DNA from: Nitrospirota bacterium
GTDB taxonomy: Bacteria; Patescibacteriota; Gracilibacteria; UBA1369; LOWO2-01-FULL-3
Reading direction: 5' to 3'
Assembly (NCBI GenBank): GCA_030598325.1
Contig: JAUVQE010000004.1
Coordinates: 1 to 32,180, forward strand
Length of the DNA stretch: 32,180 nucleotides
This document shows positions 21,418-31,778 of the stretch, piece by piece (within the stretch, counting starts at the first letter, position 1; each line of letters starts with the position of its first letter). Under the pieces are notes generated by a model. That model worked only from the letters and a program-made list of their open reading frames with translations, did not search any database and was not told the origin of the DNA. The position numbers and the translations under genes were made by a program.

Positions 21418-21553
21418 TCGCTGTAAAATAATGATTTGTCCAAGCAAAAAGGATTTTACCTAACTTGAAAGAGTTTTTGGCTTAAAACTGTGATCGTAAA
21501 TGTAAGAAACCTCATTATCAAATGCGGTCTAATATATATTATAAATTGTTGTG

Positions 21554-21582
21554 GGAGTGAAGGTGGTAAGGACCTTCACTCC
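21554..21582 (-). terminator. strong hairpin downstream of the ORFan gene, possible 3' end/terminator (no clear U-tract)
   Basis: GGAGTGAAGGT (21554-21564) pairs perfectly with ACCTTCACTCC (21572-21582), 7-nt loop. Confidence 0.5.
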
Positions 21583-21777
21583 AGTAATTTTGTTAGCACC
21601 TTACCTGTATGAGATCACGCTTTTGCCTTCTACTCGCCATCGTCGGCAGCAGTGAGGACAGGCACGATCGGGTCGATTTTCAGGTCCATATCGCGCAACG
21701 CACTCTCCAGTTTTTCGATGAATCCTTCCTTGAGCATCCAGACGGCTCCGTCCCCACTGCTCCCCAAGATCCTCAAT

Positions 21778-22230
21778 TCATGGGTAAGACCTTAAGGGGA
21801 GCAGCCTGTAGGACAATCTCAGTTTCTCCTTGTAATACGCCTCCTCCTGCCTCCAGCCGGGGCTTACCATCCTGAGCATAGCCCTGCAGACTTCATCATC
21901 CGGGCGAGTACCGTTGCTAGGAGGCTTACCATCATACATGGCCTTGCGCACCCGTCGGAGGGACGCCAGTTCTTCTCCAAAAACCTGTTGATCGGGTGGG
22001 AGCAGATCGTGGAGCCGTTCGATATCACTCTGGCTCGTTGCCAGAGTGAGAATGACTGCATAGGCTCTATCCACGCCAAGCACCGAATCCGCCCCCTTCA
22101 AACGCGGAAAACTAAACTGTGGAACCTTGACTCCTCCAACATGATCCAAATCCAAGTCATGAAGCATCTGCTCCCACTTCTGCTCTTTCTTTCCAGTCGT
22201 CATCACAAACCTCTGGTCTGGAATTATCAC
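21778..22230 (-). CDS. hypothetical ORFan-like protein, 150 aa, GTG start; may continue in the +1 frame to 21630
   Basis: GTG start at 22230 preceded by SD-like GAGGA with short spacing; higher-GC codon usage than neighbours. Alternative ATG at 22203. Confidence 0.6.
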   Translation of the reverse strand: MIIPDQRFVMTTGKKEQKWEQMLHDLDLDHVGGVKVPQFSFPRLKGADSVLGVDRAYAVILTLATSQSDIERLHDLLPPDQQVFGEELASLRRVRKAMYDGKPPSNGTRPDDEVCRAMLRMVSPGWRQEEAYYKEKLRLSYRLLPLRSYP

Positions 22231-22234
22231 TTAA

Positions 22235-22391
22235 TCCTCAACTGAGGACACTAGATTGCTGACCAAGCAACCAAGTCGCAATCCCCAAGTGTAACTGCAC
22301 TTCATCCTGGGGTAAAAATTCCTGCGATCCACTGCAACTGCAGTGTTTTTTACCATAATTGGCAAGATCACAACAACACGCAACTGCGCGC
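22235..22391 (-). promoter_or_regulatory. 5' leader with four AGUU-loop hairpins upstream of the ORFan
   Basis: Minus-strand RNA: GCGCGC-AGUU-GCGUGU (22376-22391, G-U wobbles), CACUGC-AGUU-GCAGUG (22330-22345), AAGUGC-AGUU-ACACUU (22287-22302), UCCUC-AGUU-GAGGA (22235-22248). Confidence 0.6.
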
Positions 22392-22494
22392 CTCAATTGG
22401 ATGATTCAAAGAGGAAGCTAACAACAAATCATTGCTATCAAGTCCCTCCTTGAATCTAAGATTCACCAAAAAGTCAAAGAACAAATGAGTTTAT

Positions 22495-22522
22495 ATTATA
22501 TATTAAAACTGTGCGACGTCAA
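22495..22522 (-). promoter_or_regulatory. sigma70-like promoter for the ORFan leader (TTGACG-N16-TATAAT)
   Basis: Minus strand TTGACG tcgcacagttttaata TATAAT. Confidence 0.6.
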
Positions 22523-26448: not shown

Positions 26449-26590
26449 TTATTTTCCGACTTTTATTCCCTTGCTTCTTCCGACTAAAAAGACCAATACT
26501 CCAATAAATGCTAACAACAATGTTAATAGAGTTGTTGTCAGATCAAAATATGACAGAACAATCGCTAAATAATTTTTTCCACTCTAAATT
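26449..26590 (-). other. candidate -1-frame C-terminal transmembrane anchor extension of the giant surface protein
   Basis: Minus strand, -1 frame relative to the stop at 26565-26567: K N Y L A I V L S Y F D L T T T L L T L L L A F I G V L V F L V G R S K G I K V G K stop (26449-26451). Confidence 0.6.
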
Positions 26591-29500
26591 CTACGATTTC
26601 ACTTGGTTTACTTTTGACCTGACTTTCAGCGTCCAATGTCAAGGTATATACCTCGTGATCGCCCGTGACTAATTCAATGTCGTCTTGTGAATGACTTAAG
26701 AGCCAGTCCCCATTTTCGTCCACCTGTGTTCTGTATATGACAGCCTGCTCAGAATGGATAAATATAATTACTTCGGAATTAGGGATACCTTTTCCGCTAA
26801 ATTCAATATTATTGCCAATACTGGTGCCAGCGACTTGCAGTACTTGCGGTGCTTTCAAAATCGGTGATTCTTCGGCCTGCGAAATATCTTCTATGGTGGT
26901 GATTTCCTCTTCTGCCGGTCCGCCTCTTTCAATGAAAATTTTTTCTTCTGTAGGCTCTTCTGTGATTTCTTCCGCCGGGGTAGGTTCTTCTGTGATTTCT
27001 TCTGTGGGTTCCTCCTCCAGACCTCCTCTTTCAATAAGAATCTTTTCTTCCGGTGTAGCGGGTTCTTCCGTGATTTCCTCCGGCTCTTCTATAATTTCTT
27101 CCTCCGGCTCTTCTGTGATTTCAACAAGGATTCTTTCTGATATGGGTCCTTCTGCTGTTTCTTCTGTGGGTTCTTCTTCCTTTTCTTCCTCTTGCGACTC
27201 ATCTGCAGGAGTTTTGTCCACACCGTAACTATGTGGCAACGGTGCCCCACCGCCTCCGCCACTACCTCCTGATCCAGATGAGGTTGTGTCGGTTGTGAAT
27301 TGGGATTCTGTAATTGTTATTTCGTTACCAAAACTATCAAATGCCCAAATCTTGGCGTGATAAGTGGTTCCTTCCGCAAGTCCAGTTATGTTTGTTGAAG
27401 CGGTTTCCATGATCGCTAAGTTGGTGTCGGCAATTTCATCCCATTTTGTCGCTGTTCCGGTTGCGTTTTGTACATCCGCTAAATCTTGTCCGTACCAAAT
27501 TTCATAATAATCAAAATTGATTTCAACGCTAACAGGGGCCCATGACCAGACAATGGATGAAGTATCGGAGCTCACGCCGGAAAAATCATTCAATCCAAGC
27601 GGATTTTTGGTGTCCAAAGCAAAATCTGCCGAATTGACATAGCTGCTTGTGTTTTGATAAACATCAGTGGCTCGTAACCTTATTTGCATATCCGCTTCTT
27701 CTTGTCCGTCAAAATCAGTACCTGCATCCCAAGTGATTGTTTTGCCTGTTCCTAATGTCATACCCGACCCTATGTCTCCTATAACGCCGGTATCAACAAC
27801 TGTCCAGGTCAGGCCTCCATCATCTGAAATGTCCATTTCAACAACAATATCACCGGATCCATCACTCAAATCATAAGATATTTCGACATCATTGCTACCG
27901 GCCACTTGTTCCGCGGAAATATTAGAAATAACCGGCGCGTTGGCATCAACGGTAAACGCGCTACTTACTTGCGCGTCACCTTCTTCAAGTCCATCATCCG
28001 GTTTCAATCTGACATAAACCGTCTCATCGTAGACCCCTACTAAATCATTAGCCGTGTTCCATACAAAAACGTGATCTTCTCCCGTCGGGGAAGAAGATAA
28101 CGTAGAAACTCCATCATGAGCAATATCAGCCGAAGCGACCGTCATTGTCGCTTCTTCACCGGTAAAATCGCCTGTTAAAGAATATTCATAAACAGATAAA
28201 TCCACAAAATTGCTTTCGGCGTCGCTCAAGTTATAACTAATATTCACATATCCATCATCAGCTTGTTGTATAGCTGAATTGATAACAATTTCCGGTTCTG
28301 TGTTGTTCCCCTGCAAATACAATGTGTTTATTTCCGTGGCATCAAGCGCTCTATTCCACATGCTCACTTCATCAATCGTTCCGTTAAAATGCTTGTCGTT
28401 TTCTACTGATCTTCTGCCTATATCCAGAGCGTTTGCTGAGGAGGAAATGTAGCCGCTCCAGCTGGTGCTATTATCCAAAGAGCCGTCTATGTATATTTTC
28501 ATTGTTTGTCCGTCGTAGGTACCTGCGACAAAATACCAAACGTTTTGGGAGGGTGTCGTGCTGGTAGTTATGGATTCTCTGCCGGAAGATGTTTCAATAG
28601 CGAATTCAAATGCGGTATTCCCATCATTATGCTGTAGTTGGTATTGGCTGTCTCCGTTTTTACTGACTATTTGCGCTCGTGCATTTCCTGTTGTTGGGTC
28701 AATTGCCCATTTCACCCAGGCCGAAACGGTGATTGCCGTACTTGGATTAAGATTTGTGGCGTCTGCGACAGTTATATAGTCATCTGTTCCATCAAATAAA
28801 AGCGCGCTGTTTTCTTTTCCGGTTGTCCATGTAGGTGAATTGGCTGGGCAGCTTGGGCTAAGAGTTCCGTCATTGGCATCATATGAATCACTTGCCGTGC
28901 AATCAGTGTTTTCATCCAGCGACCAGCGACTTATTGGGTCTGTGTCGGGTGTGAGTATTGTAAAATTCGCATCACTCACGTCGCTAACCAAAGTCTCCAA
29001 AACGTCAGTAATTCGTATCTTTACGGTGGTGCTTGGATCGGCGGGCACTGTCCATGCATGGCTTCCGTCATCTGTCGTTGAGGATGTAATAATATTTATA
29101 TCTGAGGCAAAATCATCTTTGGAATATTCAAGCTTCACATTGCCCGATGTATTTGCTGAACTCCACGTGATGGTTGCTGTTGATCCGACTGTTGGATACT
29201 CACCTCCATTTGGGGCGGTGAGTGTCACACTTGTTGCGGTACTTTCAATATCCACCGTATTCAAAAGACCCGTGGCACCATTTCCTTCATAAGCAATAAG
29301 GTATTTATCGCCCGAAAGGTGTAGAATTTTAGGGAAACTTGTAAATAATGTATCAAACTCAAATGTTGATAGAACGGCATCTTCGATAGCCCCGGTGCTA
29401 TCGACATCGAATGTTTTTATAAACCCGTCGCCGTCCTGACCTTGATAAATAGACGCGAAGACGTCACCGACGATAGAAATAATATCCGGTTCAAGCCCGC

Positions 29501-31778
29501 TGATCGTGTCATATTCCAACGTATCAATAACTGTATCGGTAATATTTCCCGATGTATCGATCTCAACTGTTTTGACAAATCCAGCATTGCTTAGCCCCCC
29601 ATAAACCACCATATATATATCCCCACTCACCTGTTTTATCTGAGGTGCCTGCCCATCGCTCGTATCAAACTCCAATGTATCAATAACAGTATCGGTTATG
29701 TTCCCCGATGTATCTATCTCTACCGTTTTTATGAATCCGTCAGCATCCACTCCTTCGTATGCGATAGCGTAGATATTGCCGGATATGTTGATGATCTCCG
29801 GAAATGCAGTGCTTGCTATATCAAATTCCAATGTATCAACGACAGTATCGGTGATGTTCCCCGATGTATCTATTTCAATCGTTTTTATAAAACCGTCATT
29901 TCCCGGTCCTCTGTAGGCAACCGCATAGATATTGCCTGAAATATTGATTAGTGACACATTCATAGCTTGTCCCAGGTCAAATTCCAATGTGTCTATTACT
30001 GTTTTTGTTATATTTCCCGATGTATCAATAGTTATCGTCACAATAAATCCATCATTTAAAACCCCTTCGTACGCAATTGCGTACACATTGCCTGAAATAT
30101 GAATGATATCCGGATAAACCGTATCCTCTATATCAAATTCAAAGGAGTCTACATTTGTATTAACAAATGTTCCGGAACTCGTGACCTCAATAGTTTTGAC
30201 AAAACCGTCAACATCTACCCCTTGGTACGCAATAGCAAAAATATCTCCGGATATGTGAATCAAATCAGGGTTTATTCCGGTAGTCGCATCAAATGTTACG
30301 GATGAGCCCAAGTTTGAAATGACTCCTTGTGCACCGGTCGAAAACGCATTTACGTCTTCTGCTTCAATATACCAACAAGTGCTATTGTTCAACTTCACCA
30401 GCGAATACCCTGCCTCCGTGGAATTGTTTTCCGAAAGAAGGATTTCACCTTCGCAACCATCAAAGACATCTTCCGCAGAAGTGGCTCCGGGACACACACG
30501 CACAGATTCATGACTCGGTAGCTTTGGTACAACAAGCTGGATTTTTGTAATCGCGGATCTATTGTTCGTTCCTATATGTACTACTGATGTGTCATTATTA
30601 GAATCAATCATATAGTCGGATATATCTAAGTCGTCGTTGTATTCAAAATAAGCAACTTTGTTGTTTTTGTGATCGAGATATATCCATTCGTCAGTGATGT
30701 TAATAATTTCGCTACTTTCACTTATAAAAGTCACATCTGTTTGATTCTTGGTTAAATTGTAAATCCTTTCTTCTTCGACTTCCTGATCGTAAGCAATCGT
30801 TATATCCAAAAGTTGTATTTCGGTTTCACAATCACCGATCAGGAATGCTTTAAACATTATTTGTCCGGTATCTATAGAGAATTCGCTAATATTATCATTT
30901 ACAACGGAAGCTGGGTTGTACTTTTTCTTACCGGCTTTCATCCATTCGTCATTCCAGTAATACCAATTTACCCCATTGTTATCGGAAAGCTGATAGTAAA
31001 TCTCTCCTCCATTTTTGTCGGCGCTCTCAATGAAGCCGGTCCACTCGGATATATTTGGAACGACCAGCGAATCTATCGGCTGAATTGTCGCTTCGCATGT
31101 TTTTGTGCCTGCGTGAGCGGTTGGAATGTCAAAAAAGATGTCTTCCAGATAGCTTACCGGTTCTTCTGCTGGTGGTTCGGGAGCGGTGACCGGCTCGGGT
31201 TCGATGATTGGCTCGGGTTCGGGGGTCGTTTCTGGTTCGGGTTCGGGAGTGGCTTCAGGTTCGGGTTCGGGAGTGGCTTCAGGTTCGGGTTCGGGGGTGG
31301 CTTCGGGTTCGGGAGTGGCTTCAGGTTCGGGTGAGGCTTCAGGCTCGGGGGCGGCTTCAGGCTCGGCCCCAAAGAGAACTATTCCATCAACAATCTGTAT
31401 TTCGCTGGAATCGTAAACATATTCTGTTGGATTATTAAAACCCCAGCTCACAGACATTGCTCTAACTTCTGCTTTTGAAGTAACAAAAAACACACCGCTA
31501 AATAGAATAATCCATAAAACCACAAGTAATGCAAAACCTGAAAGACCCAAAAGAGAAACTTTTCTTTTCAGTTTATATTTCTCAATTTCTTTTTCATCTT
31601 TACTGAATTTTTCAGGAGCAAGAAAAATGTAAACAGGCAACGATATTATCAACAAAAAAAGCTCTAAAAAAATAATAATAAAAGCATTACCGATGGTCTT
31701 TAAAACACCAGCATTGATGATTTTCTCTTTCTTTTTGTAAATCGCGGTCGAAACGTGCGATATAAAATTTAGCCACAT
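26565..31778 (-). CDS. giant surface protein, 1737 aa: two N-terminal TM, E/P/A/T-rich linker, seven 52-aa beta-propeller-like repeats, LamG/concanavalin domain, Ig/FN3-like domains, E-rich linker, C-terminal Ig-like domain
   Basis: LLFDGTDDYITVADATNLNPSTAITVSAWVKW...WYFVAGTYDGQTMKIYIDGSLDNS...FNGTIDEVSMWNRALDATEI (LamG); seven PxIIxISGxxYAIAYEG..xDGFIKTxEIDTSGNITDTVIDTLEFD repeats; WSWAPVSVEINFDYYEIWYGQD (FN3-like). Confidence 0.9.
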   Translation of the reverse strand: MWLNFISHVSTAIYKKKEKIINAGVLKTIGNAFIIIFLELFLLIISLPVYIFLAPEKFSKDEKEIEKYKLKRKVSLLGLSGFALLVVLWIILFSGVFFVTSKAEVRAMSVSWGFNNPTEYVYDSSEIQIVDGIVLFGAEPEAAPEPEASPEPEATPEPEATPEPEPEATPEPEPEATPEPEPETTPEPEPIIEPEPVTAPEPPAEEPVSYLEDIFFDIPTAHAGTKTCEATIQPIDSLVVPNISEWTGFIESADKNGGEIYYQLSDNNGVNWYYWNDEWMKAGKKKYNPASVVNDNISEFSIDTGQIMFKAFLIGDCETEIQLLDITIAYDQEVEEERIYNLTKNQTDVTFISESSEIINITDEWIYLDHKNNKVAYFEYNDDLDISDYMIDSNNDTSVVHIGTNNRSAITKIQLVVPKLPSHESVRVCPGATSAEDVFDGCEGEILLSENNSTEAGYSLVKLNNSTCWYIEAEDVNAFSTGAQGVISNLGSSVTFDATTGINPDLIHISGDIFAIAYQGVDVDGFVKTIEVTSSGTFVNTNVDSFEFDIEDTVYPDIIHISGNVYAIAYEGVLNDGFIVTITIDTSGNITKTVIDTLEFDLGQAMNVSLINISGNIYAVAYRGPGNDGFIKTIEIDTSGNITDTVVDTLEFDIASTAFPEIINISGNIYAIAYEGVDADGFIKTVEIDTSGNITDTVIDTLEFDTSDGQAPQIKQVSGDIYMVVYGGLSNAGFVKTVEIDTSGNITDTVIDTLEYDTISGLEPDIISIVGDVFASIYQGQDGDGFIKTFDVDSTGAIEDAVLSTFEFDTLFTSFPKILHLSGDKYLIAYEGNGATGLLNTVDIESTATSVTLTAPNGGEYPTVGSTATITWSSANTSGNVKLEYSKDDFASDINIITSSTTDDGSHAWTVPADPSTTVKIRITDVLETLVSDVSDANFTILTPDTDPISRWSLDENTDCTASDSYDANDGTLSPSCPANSPTWTTGKENSALLFDGTDDYITVADATNLNPSTAITVSAWVKWAIDPTTGNARAQIVSKNGDSQYQLQHNDGNTAFEFAIETSSGRESITTSTTPSQNVWYFVAGTYDGQTMKIYIDGSLDNSTSWSGYISSSANALDIGRRSVENDKHFNGTIDEVSMWNRALDATEINTLYLQGNNTEPEIVINSAIQQADDGYVNISYNLSDAESNFVDLSVYEYSLTGDFTGEEATMTVASADIAHDGVSTLSSSPTGEDHVFVWNTANDLVGVYDETVYVRLKPDDGLEEGDAQVSSAFTVDANAPVISNISAEQVAGSNDVEISYDLSDGSGDIVVEMDISDDGGLTWTVVDTGVIGDIGSGMTLGTGKTITWDAGTDFDGQEEADMQIRLRATDVYQNTSSYVNSADFALDTKNPLGLNDFSGVSSDTSSIVWSWAPVSVEINFDYYEIWYGQDLADVQNATGTATKWDEIADTNLAIMETASTNITGLAEGTTYHAKIWAFDSFGNEITITESQFTTDTTSSGSGGSGGGGGAPLPHSYGVDKTPADESQEEEKEEEPTEETAEGPISERILVEITEEPEEEIIEEPEEITEEPATPEEKILIERGGLEEEPTEEITEEPTPAEEITEEPTEEKIFIERGGPAEEEITTIEDISQAEESPILKAPQVLQVAGTSIGNNIEFSGKGIPNSEVIIFIHSEQAVIYRTQVDENGDWLLSHSQDDIELVTGDHEVYTLTLDAESQVKSKPSEIVEFRVEKII
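29240..30280 (-). repeat. seven 156-bp (52-aa) internal repeats in the giant surface protein
   Basis: Protein repeats align in register at 52 aa; several units remain close at nucleotide level (for example aatgtatcaa.aacagtatcggt.atgttccccgatgtatctat). Confidence 0.85.
31184..31366. repeat. 18/24-bp tandem repeat encoding the EPEATPEP linker
   Basis: ggttcggg(ttcggg)agtggcttca-type units; protein EPEATPEPEPEATPEPEPEATPEPE. Confidence 0.9.

What the first reader, a model, noticed from the sequence alone, without database searches (positions are those of the whole stretch)
22235..22391. Leader RNA with four hairpins sharing an AGUU loop; the last one hides the Shine-Dalgarno
Seen: between a minus-strand promoter (22522-22495) and the GTG at 22230 lie four small stem-loops with the same AGUU tetraloop, loops about 43-53 nt apart. 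H1 is GCGCGC-AGUU-GCGUGU (G-U pairs work only on the minus-strand RNA). H2 is CACUGC-AGUU-GCAGUG, inside an outer GGUAAAAA/UUUUUACC stem (22311-22318 / 22347-22354). H3 is AAGUGC-AGUU-ACACUU (C.A next to the loop, so possibly a 5-bp stem), inside an outer CCCC/GGGG. H4 is UCCUC-AGUU-GAGGA, whose 3' arm GAGGA is the apparent SD for the GTG. Known analogy: phage coat-protein operator hairpins that occlude a start region. Inference: an unrecognised RNA-binding-protein or autoregulatory leader in which one factor reads the repeated AGUU loops and controls access to the SD.
Basis: partly seen in the sequence, partly recalled or inferred. Interest (0 to 1): 0.72.

Follow-up and report, generated by a model that had tools for sequence, protein, structure and literature searches.

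The report
Leader RNA with matched hairpin loops
A small bacterial gene is preceded by a folded RNA whose hairpins share one four-letter loop; in the only relative found the same hairpins carry a different loop but again all the same one, as if a single partner reads them all, which points to a new RNA-protein pair that may control its own production.

Summary
The hairpins are real and clustered far beyond chance. They belong to a ~225-nt structured RNA (22456-22232, minus strand), not a four-hairpin leader. A covariance model built from this one sequence hits one distant genome of the same phylum (G315; JAUSIS010000006.1) at 60.3 bits (22.1 bits for sequence alone), directly downstream of a promoter-like site and upstream of a homologous protein. 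Nineteen base pairs change on both sides between the two RNAs. In G315 the equivalents of H2, H3 and H4 all carry ACGA instead of AGUU: the loop is shared within each RNA but differs between them, the pattern expected if one partner reads all the loops. The 'H4 hides the SD' part is not supported: the start is probably ATG 22203, and in G315 H4 lies 52 nt from the start. The encoded protein (141 aa here, 264 aa in G315) matches no family searched; its G315 C-terminus weakly resembles a LAGLIDADG fold. The window copy carries an in-frame carB fragment and no C-terminal half, so it may be decaying. Best guess: a horizontally moving RNA-protein unit in which the protein binds the loops. Regulation versus toxin-antitoxin is undecided.

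The parts
22495..22522 (-). sigma-70-type promoter TTGACG-16-TATAAT, predicted start of the leader transcript near 22488
   Evidence: 11 of 12 consensus matches; G315 has TGGACA-17-TATTAT with TG before it at the equivalent place
22403..22456 (-). P0: long hairpin (14 + 10 bp) at the 5' end of the conserved RNA
   Evidence: MFE p ~1.0; homologous in G315 with 5 both-side changes
22398..22406 (-). linker AAUCAUCCA, identical in G315, where UCAUCC pairs with the Shine-Dalgarno GGAUGA
   Evidence: alignment; pairing p 0.78-0.99 in G315, ~0 in the window
22376..22391 (-). H1: GCGCGC-AGUU-GCGUGU
   Evidence: in G315 a hairpin CAUGCC-CGC-GGCAUG at this place without the shared loop
22324..22371 (-). 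three-way junction: closing stem GUGAUC/GAUCGC, arm UUGCC/GGUAA, arm H2
   Evidence: closing stem has 3 both-side changes versus G315
22330..22345 (-). H2: CACUGC-AGUU-GCAGUG (G315: CAUUGU-ACGA-ACAAUG)
   Evidence: p ~1.0 in every fold; 2 both-side changes, all cells paired
22283..22312 (-). CCCC/GGGG stem with a 6-nt 5' bulge enclosing H3 AAGUG-CAGUUA-CACUU (G315: CCCC-GACAAA-AACGC-ACGA-GCGUU-GGGG)
   Evidence: H3: 3 both-side changes of 5 pairs in the curated comparison, 2 of 5 in the MAFFT alignment
22254..22272 (-). H5: GGUUGCU-UGGUC-AGCAAUC (G315: CUUUGCC-N10-GGCAAAG)
   Evidence: 4 both-side changes
22235..22248 (-). H4: UCCUC-AGUU-GAGGA (G315: CUUUC-ACGA-GAAAG)
   Evidence: 3 both-side changes, 100% of cells paired
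22210..22214 (-). probable Shine-Dalgarno AGAGG for ATG 22203
   Evidence: sequence, 6-nt spacer
21778..22203 (-). encoded protein, 141 aa, N-terminal half of a family whose G315 member has 264 aa
   Evidence: tail aligns with G315 at score 80, shuffle maximum 50 in 1000; tblastn E 2.7e-5; codon-position identity 0.45/0.56/0.33
22070..22161 (-). in-frame insertion in that ORF of a carB (carbamoyl-phosphate synthase large chain) fragment, absent from the G315 protein
   Evidence: ~82% DNA identity over 93 nt to the genome's own carB at G000:C7; found as carB in 49 of 60 relatives
21630..21776 (-). second short ORF (48 aa) with coding-like codon use; no significant similarity to the G315 C-terminus
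21554..21582 (-). perfect 11-bp hairpin at the 3' end of the unit, possible terminator (no clear U-run on this strand)

Best explanation
This is a compact, horizontally moving two-part gene: promoter, a ~225-nt structured RNA, then a small protein that is the RNA's cognate partner. Shown: the RNA and the protein occur together in two distant genomes; the RNA fold is conserved through compensatory changes; and the loops of H2, H3 and H4 are identical within each RNA but different between the two (AGUU versus ACGA). The change of all loops together would then reflect co-evolution of protein and RNA. The window copy is shortened and carries a carB insert, so it may be decaying.
For: Single-sequence covariance model hits G315 at 60.3 bits, E 5.8e-18; sequence-only model 22.1 bits; no hit in 233 kb of other fetched loci. 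19 pairs with both-side changes versus 9.5 +/- 2.3 in shuffles and 1-4 when partners are slid. G315 leader folds at z = -4.3 and by itself gives the three ACGA hairpins, the only ACGA hairpins with stem >=5 in 10.8 kb. Three hairpins sharing one tetraloop: 1 in 20,000 shuffles for each leader. Protein homology directly downstream in both. Promoter-like site just upstream of the RNA in both, and no terminator-like site between RNA and ORF on the transcribed strand in G315. In G315 the SD pairs with the conserved linker, p 0.99 for five of six pairs.
Against: Only two members are known, so the loop rule rests on one comparison. H1 carries AGUU in the window, but its G315 counterpart has a different loop. 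No RNA-binding domain was recognised and no binding data exist. Linker-SD pairing is not predicted in the window. The window protein lacks the G315 C-terminal half, so an intact function here is doubtful.
Confidence: 0.45

Rival explanations
1. RNA-antitoxin / toxin pair working like type III toxin-antitoxin or AbiF: the structured RNA binds the protein through its equal loops and keeps a toxic nuclease inactive; the pair is mobile cargo or defence.
For: RNA directly upstream of a small, fast-evolving protein; several equal hairpins per RNA; G315 copy sits between LexA/S24, DUF3768, ThiF-DUF6791 with multi-ubiquitin, Replic_Relax and HerA/TraG-like genes; sporadic distribution. AbiF is a documented case of hairpin motifs upstream of the toxin binding it in cis and trans (PMC12373285).
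Against: No Abi_2, ToxN or HEPN match; no Rfam RF03085 or other match; no terminator between RNA and ORF in G315; hairpin stems are not direct repeats.
Confidence: 0.2
2. A host factor (ribonuclease, RNA chaperone or ribosomal protein) reads the loops; the encoded protein has an unrelated job and the loops track the host.
For: The two hosts are far apart (different classes of one phylum; one search lists G315 only as 'same phylum'), so a host factor could differ.
Against: No other AGTT hairpin with stem >=4 on the minus strand of the 32-kb contig and no other ACGA hairpin with stem >=5 in 10.8 kb of G315; this is only a small part of each genome.
Confidence: 0.15
3. The RNA is a structural or guide component of a nuclease or mobile element (LAGLIDADG-like protein plus RNA), for example an intron-derived or maturase-like ribonucleoprotein, and the leader is not primarily a regulator.
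For: G315 protein residues FLAQMFDEEFSFGAAY resemble a LAGLIDADG motif; predicted order helix-strand-strand-helix-strand-strand; most top Foldseek hits of the 264-aa model are LAGLIDADG endonucleases.
Against: Models have pLDDT 41-43 and no Foldseek match is significant; no group I/II intron Rfam match; both copies look like stand-alone genes; the window protein lacks this part.
Confidence: 0.12
4. The RNA is functional but the equal loops are coincidence or drift.
For: Only two sequences are known; loops are short.
Against: About 1 in 20,000 per leader, in two leaders, at the same three homologous positions.
Confidence: 0.08

Closest known systems
abiF RNA / AbiF (Abi_2) and type III toxin-antitoxin (ToxIN, CptIN, TenpIN)
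   Same: own promoter, structured RNA with several hairpin motifs immediately upstream of a small protein, mobile or defence context in G315
   Different: no Rfam abiF match, no Abi_2/HEPN/ToxN match, no terminator between RNA and ORF in G315, hairpins are not tandem repeats, loop sequence is shared within but not between members
CsrB/RsmZ-CsrA and CsrA-bound leaders (from general knowledge)
   Same: several hairpins presenting one loop motif to one protein
   Different: CsrA loops carry GGA and are conserved across species; here the loop itself changes as a set; protein unrelated by the family searches made
Phage coat-protein operator hairpins (MS2, Qbeta; from general knowledge)
   Same: hairpin near a translation start whose loop is read by a protein of the same genome
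   Different: one operator hairpin in phage, at least three here; in the window-G315 comparison the hairpins are not at a fixed distance from the start
LAGLIDADG homing endonucleases / maturases
   Same: weak motif and predicted topology in the G315 C-terminal half
   Different: no significant sequence or fold match; absent from the window copy; no intron

Membership tests
Conserved cis RNA structure (any) | covarying helices in a homologous locus | tested here: met
Conserved cis RNA structure (any) | match to a curated Rfam 15 family | tested here: not met
Autogenous translational leader | RNA and ORF on one transcript without a terminator between them | tested here: met
   G315: no terminator-like site on the transcribed strand between RNA and ORF. 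Window: the one minus-strand hit lies on H1 inside the leader, none between 22235 and the ORF. Prediction only.
Autogenous translational leader | Shine-Dalgarno or start sequestered by the leader in all members | tested here: inconclusive
   G315 linker-SD pairing p 0.99; in the window the linker pairing is absent, but the SD bases and ATG are partly paired locally
Autogenous translational leader | encoded protein binds the leader | not testable with these tools
   needs a binding assay
Type III toxin-antitoxin / AbiF | toxin homologous to ToxN, CptN, TenpN or Abi_2 (HEPN) | tested here: not met
   Pfam, NCBIfam, PADLOC, PHROGs, PDB sequence searches empty
Type III toxin-antitoxin / AbiF | antitoxin made of direct sequence repeats or abiF motifs | tested here: not met
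   no direct-repeat family within the leader; stems unrelated; no RF03085 hit
Type III toxin-antitoxin / AbiF | protein toxic without the RNA | not testable with these tools
   needs expression experiment
LAGLIDADG protein | significant profile or fold match | tested here: not met
   no Pfam hit at E<=5; Foldseek best E 0.07 on a pLDDT 41 model; motif-like stretch only

The most novel reading that the evidence does not exclude
A new class of RNA-protein pair with a 'loop code': every copy carries a set of hairpins with one private tetraloop, and the cognate protein reads only its own loop, so that different copies are mutually orthogonal, as in toxin-antitoxin or other self-recognition systems.
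Probability: 0.25. Interest if true: 0.85.

Novelty: new variant of a known kind. Interest (0 to 1): 0.62.

Why it matters
Neither the RNA nor the protein matches any family searched, yet the two travel together. Concerted replacement of the same tetraloop in three separate hairpins is direct evolutionary evidence for a single reader and gives a clean, cheap test of RNA-protein co-evolution: swap AGUU and ACGA loops and ask which protein binds. If it holds it would yield new orthogonal RNA-protein tags and possibly a new RNA-based control or defence unit from small-genome bacteria.

Tried and rejected
Rfam at gathering and relaxed thresholds: nothing credible. The whole 930-nt unit as one non-coding RNA: rejected, since codon-position statistics and protein homology show the 3' part is coding and 200-nt z-scores are ordinary there. 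A permuted carB piece in the leader: chance. ORF2 as the missing C-terminus: not significant. Viral contigs pattern and protein scans: chance hits only. Genome-contig scans: nothing for the window protein tail; the G315 protein found only itself. phages and plasmids: nothing for either protein in phages or for the G315 protein in plasmids; the only plasmid DNA match was a 36-nt chance hit. G083 model hit lies inside a coding gene and is chance. Kissing of loops with complementary tetranucleotides: AACU occurs once in the window leader, UCGU nowhere in the G315 leader. Structure prediction: too poor to use. LAGLIDADG membership is therefore kept as a lead only.

Full report
What was checked. 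H1, H2 and H4 are the only AGTT-loop hairpins with stem of at least 4 on that strand of the whole 32-kb contig; none of 20,000 dinucleotide shuffles of 22391-22235 gives three. H3 is a 5-bp stem with a C.A at the loop and has only about 5% probability in single-sequence folds. The whole leader 22495-22200 folds far better than shuffles (z = -6.4). In 200-nt windows from 16.8 to 25.5 kb the strongest signals are those at the leader, the lowest being z = -4.9 for 22301-22500 on the minus strand.

Genome. The window is the entire contig C76 of a 0.92-Mb, 76-contig genome; relatives are about 1 Mb, so I infer a Patescibacteria-like lineage. In the same-genus genome G001 the upstream 395-aa gene is followed at once by the sigma-factor gene; here a ~4.9-kb segment (22545-17686, the RNA-protein unit plus a subtilase with TIG and SLH domains) lies between them. 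Insertion here or deletion there cannot be told apart.

The protein. The ORF was first confusing because residues 13-57 match carB, carbamoyl-phosphate synthase large chain. That is a ~92-nt carB fragment (22161-22070) sitting in frame inside an otherwise unrelated ORF. The rest of the ORF matched one genome out of 382 sampled from the phylum, G315 (E 0.0015); global shuffling confirms the match (score 80 versus at most 50 in 1000 shuffles), the match is collinear through the N-terminus (tblastn E 2.7e-5), and identity by codon position (0.45, 0.56, 0.33) is that of a protein under selection. G315 encodes 264 aa; the window stops after the part equivalent to G315 residues 1-118. ORF2 behind it has coding-like statistics but no significant match to the G315 C-terminus.

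The RNA. A covariance model from the window leader alone (R1) hits the G315 locus at 60.3 bits, complete over 227 positions, ending 46 nt before the G315 start codon (L085 coordinates). The same model without base pairs scores 22.1 bits, and R1 hits nothing in 233 kb of other loci. On the two-sequence alignment 19 of 68 pairs change on both sides; shuffling gives 9.5 +/- 2.3 and sliding the partners 1-4. The G315 leader folds at z = -4.3 and its own MFE contains the same elements. Shared anatomy: promoter-like site, long 5' hairpin, linker AAUCAUCCA, hairpin H1, three-way junction with H2, CCCC/GGGG stem with a 5' bulge and H3, H5, H4, SD, ORF.

The key observation. In the window H2, H3 and H4 carry AGUU (as does H1). 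In G315 the homologous H2, H3 and H4 carry ACGA (CAUUGU-ACGA-ACAAUG, AACGC-ACGA-GCGUU, CUUUC-ACGA-GAAAG). These are the only ACGA hairpins with stem of at least 5 in 10.8 kb around it. Sharing of one tetraloop by three hairpins occurs in 1 of 20,000 shuffles for either leader. The stems have different sequences within each RNA, so the equality is not duplication. The simplest reading is a single reader that contacts all loops and that changed its preference between the two lineages. H1 is the exception: its G315 counterpart has a CGC loop.

How it probably works. The leader has no terminator-like site between RNA and ORF in G315 and none past H1 in the window, and in G315 the Shine-Dalgarno GGAUGA is predicted to pair with the conserved linker (five of six pairs p 0.99), so a translational, autogenous control is my first choice (0.45 for the whole statement). 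In the window that pairing is not predicted (p ~0) and the SD/ATG are instead partly paired locally; H4 as an SD-hiding hairpin is not conserved. A toxin-antitoxin-like ribonucleoprotein remains a live rival, helped by the G315 neighbourhood (LexA/S24, DUF3768, ThiF-DUF6791 with multi-ubiquitin, Replic_Relax, HerA/TraG-like).

What it is not. No Rfam, Pfam, NCBIfam, PHROGs, PADLOC or PDB sequence match exists for RNA or protein, apart from carB for the insert. A LAGLIDADG-like motif and topology in the G315 C-terminus is a lead only: the models have pLDDT 41-43 and no fold match is significant, though most of the top-ranked ones for the 264-aa model are LAGLIDADG enzymes.

Limits. Two members only, despite covariance-model searches of several hundred genomes (291 near relatives, 56 of the G315 class, 382 across the phylum, 357 of the class; overlapping sets). 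The window copy may be decaying: it carries the carB insert and lacks the C-terminal half. Transcription starts, binding and function are all unmeasured.

Noticed in passing
22161-22070 (-): A ~92-nt, ~82%-identical piece of carB (its most conserved motif) is inserted in frame in an unrelated small ORF; the genome's own carB is on contig C7. How a gene fragment was captured this way is unexplained.
   Followed up: partly
22177-22166 / 22007-21996 and 22049-22025: A 12-bp perfect inverted repeat (arms on either side of the carB insert) and a 10-bp perfect hairpin between its arms lie inside the coding sequence; the chance of either is low.
   Followed up: no
22545-17686: About 4.9 kb (RNA-protein unit plus a 1218-aa subtilase with TIG and SLH domains) is absent between the same two neighbours in the same-genus genome G001.
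   Followed up: partly
22490-22505 and 21530-21545: A 16-nt A+T-only inverted repeat (15 of 16) flanks the GC-rich unit; could be element ends or just promoter-like AT tracts.
   Followed up: no
L085 2004-4078: Next to the G315 copy: a multi-ubiquitin gene followed by a ThiF-DUF6791 gene and a LexA/S24 repressor, in an island with Replic_Relax and HerA/TraG-like genes, looking like a ubiquitin-like defence or modification cassette.
   Followed up: no
L085 5007-5801, residues 145-216: FLAQMFDEEFSFGAAY and the predicted strand-helix order resemble a degenerate LAGLIDADG domain.
   Followed up: partly
26565-31778 (-): 1737-aa protein with a laminin-G/concanavalin-like domain and a weak fibronectin III match, next to a Cache-HAMP-PAS histidine kinase and a response regulator.
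   Followed up: no
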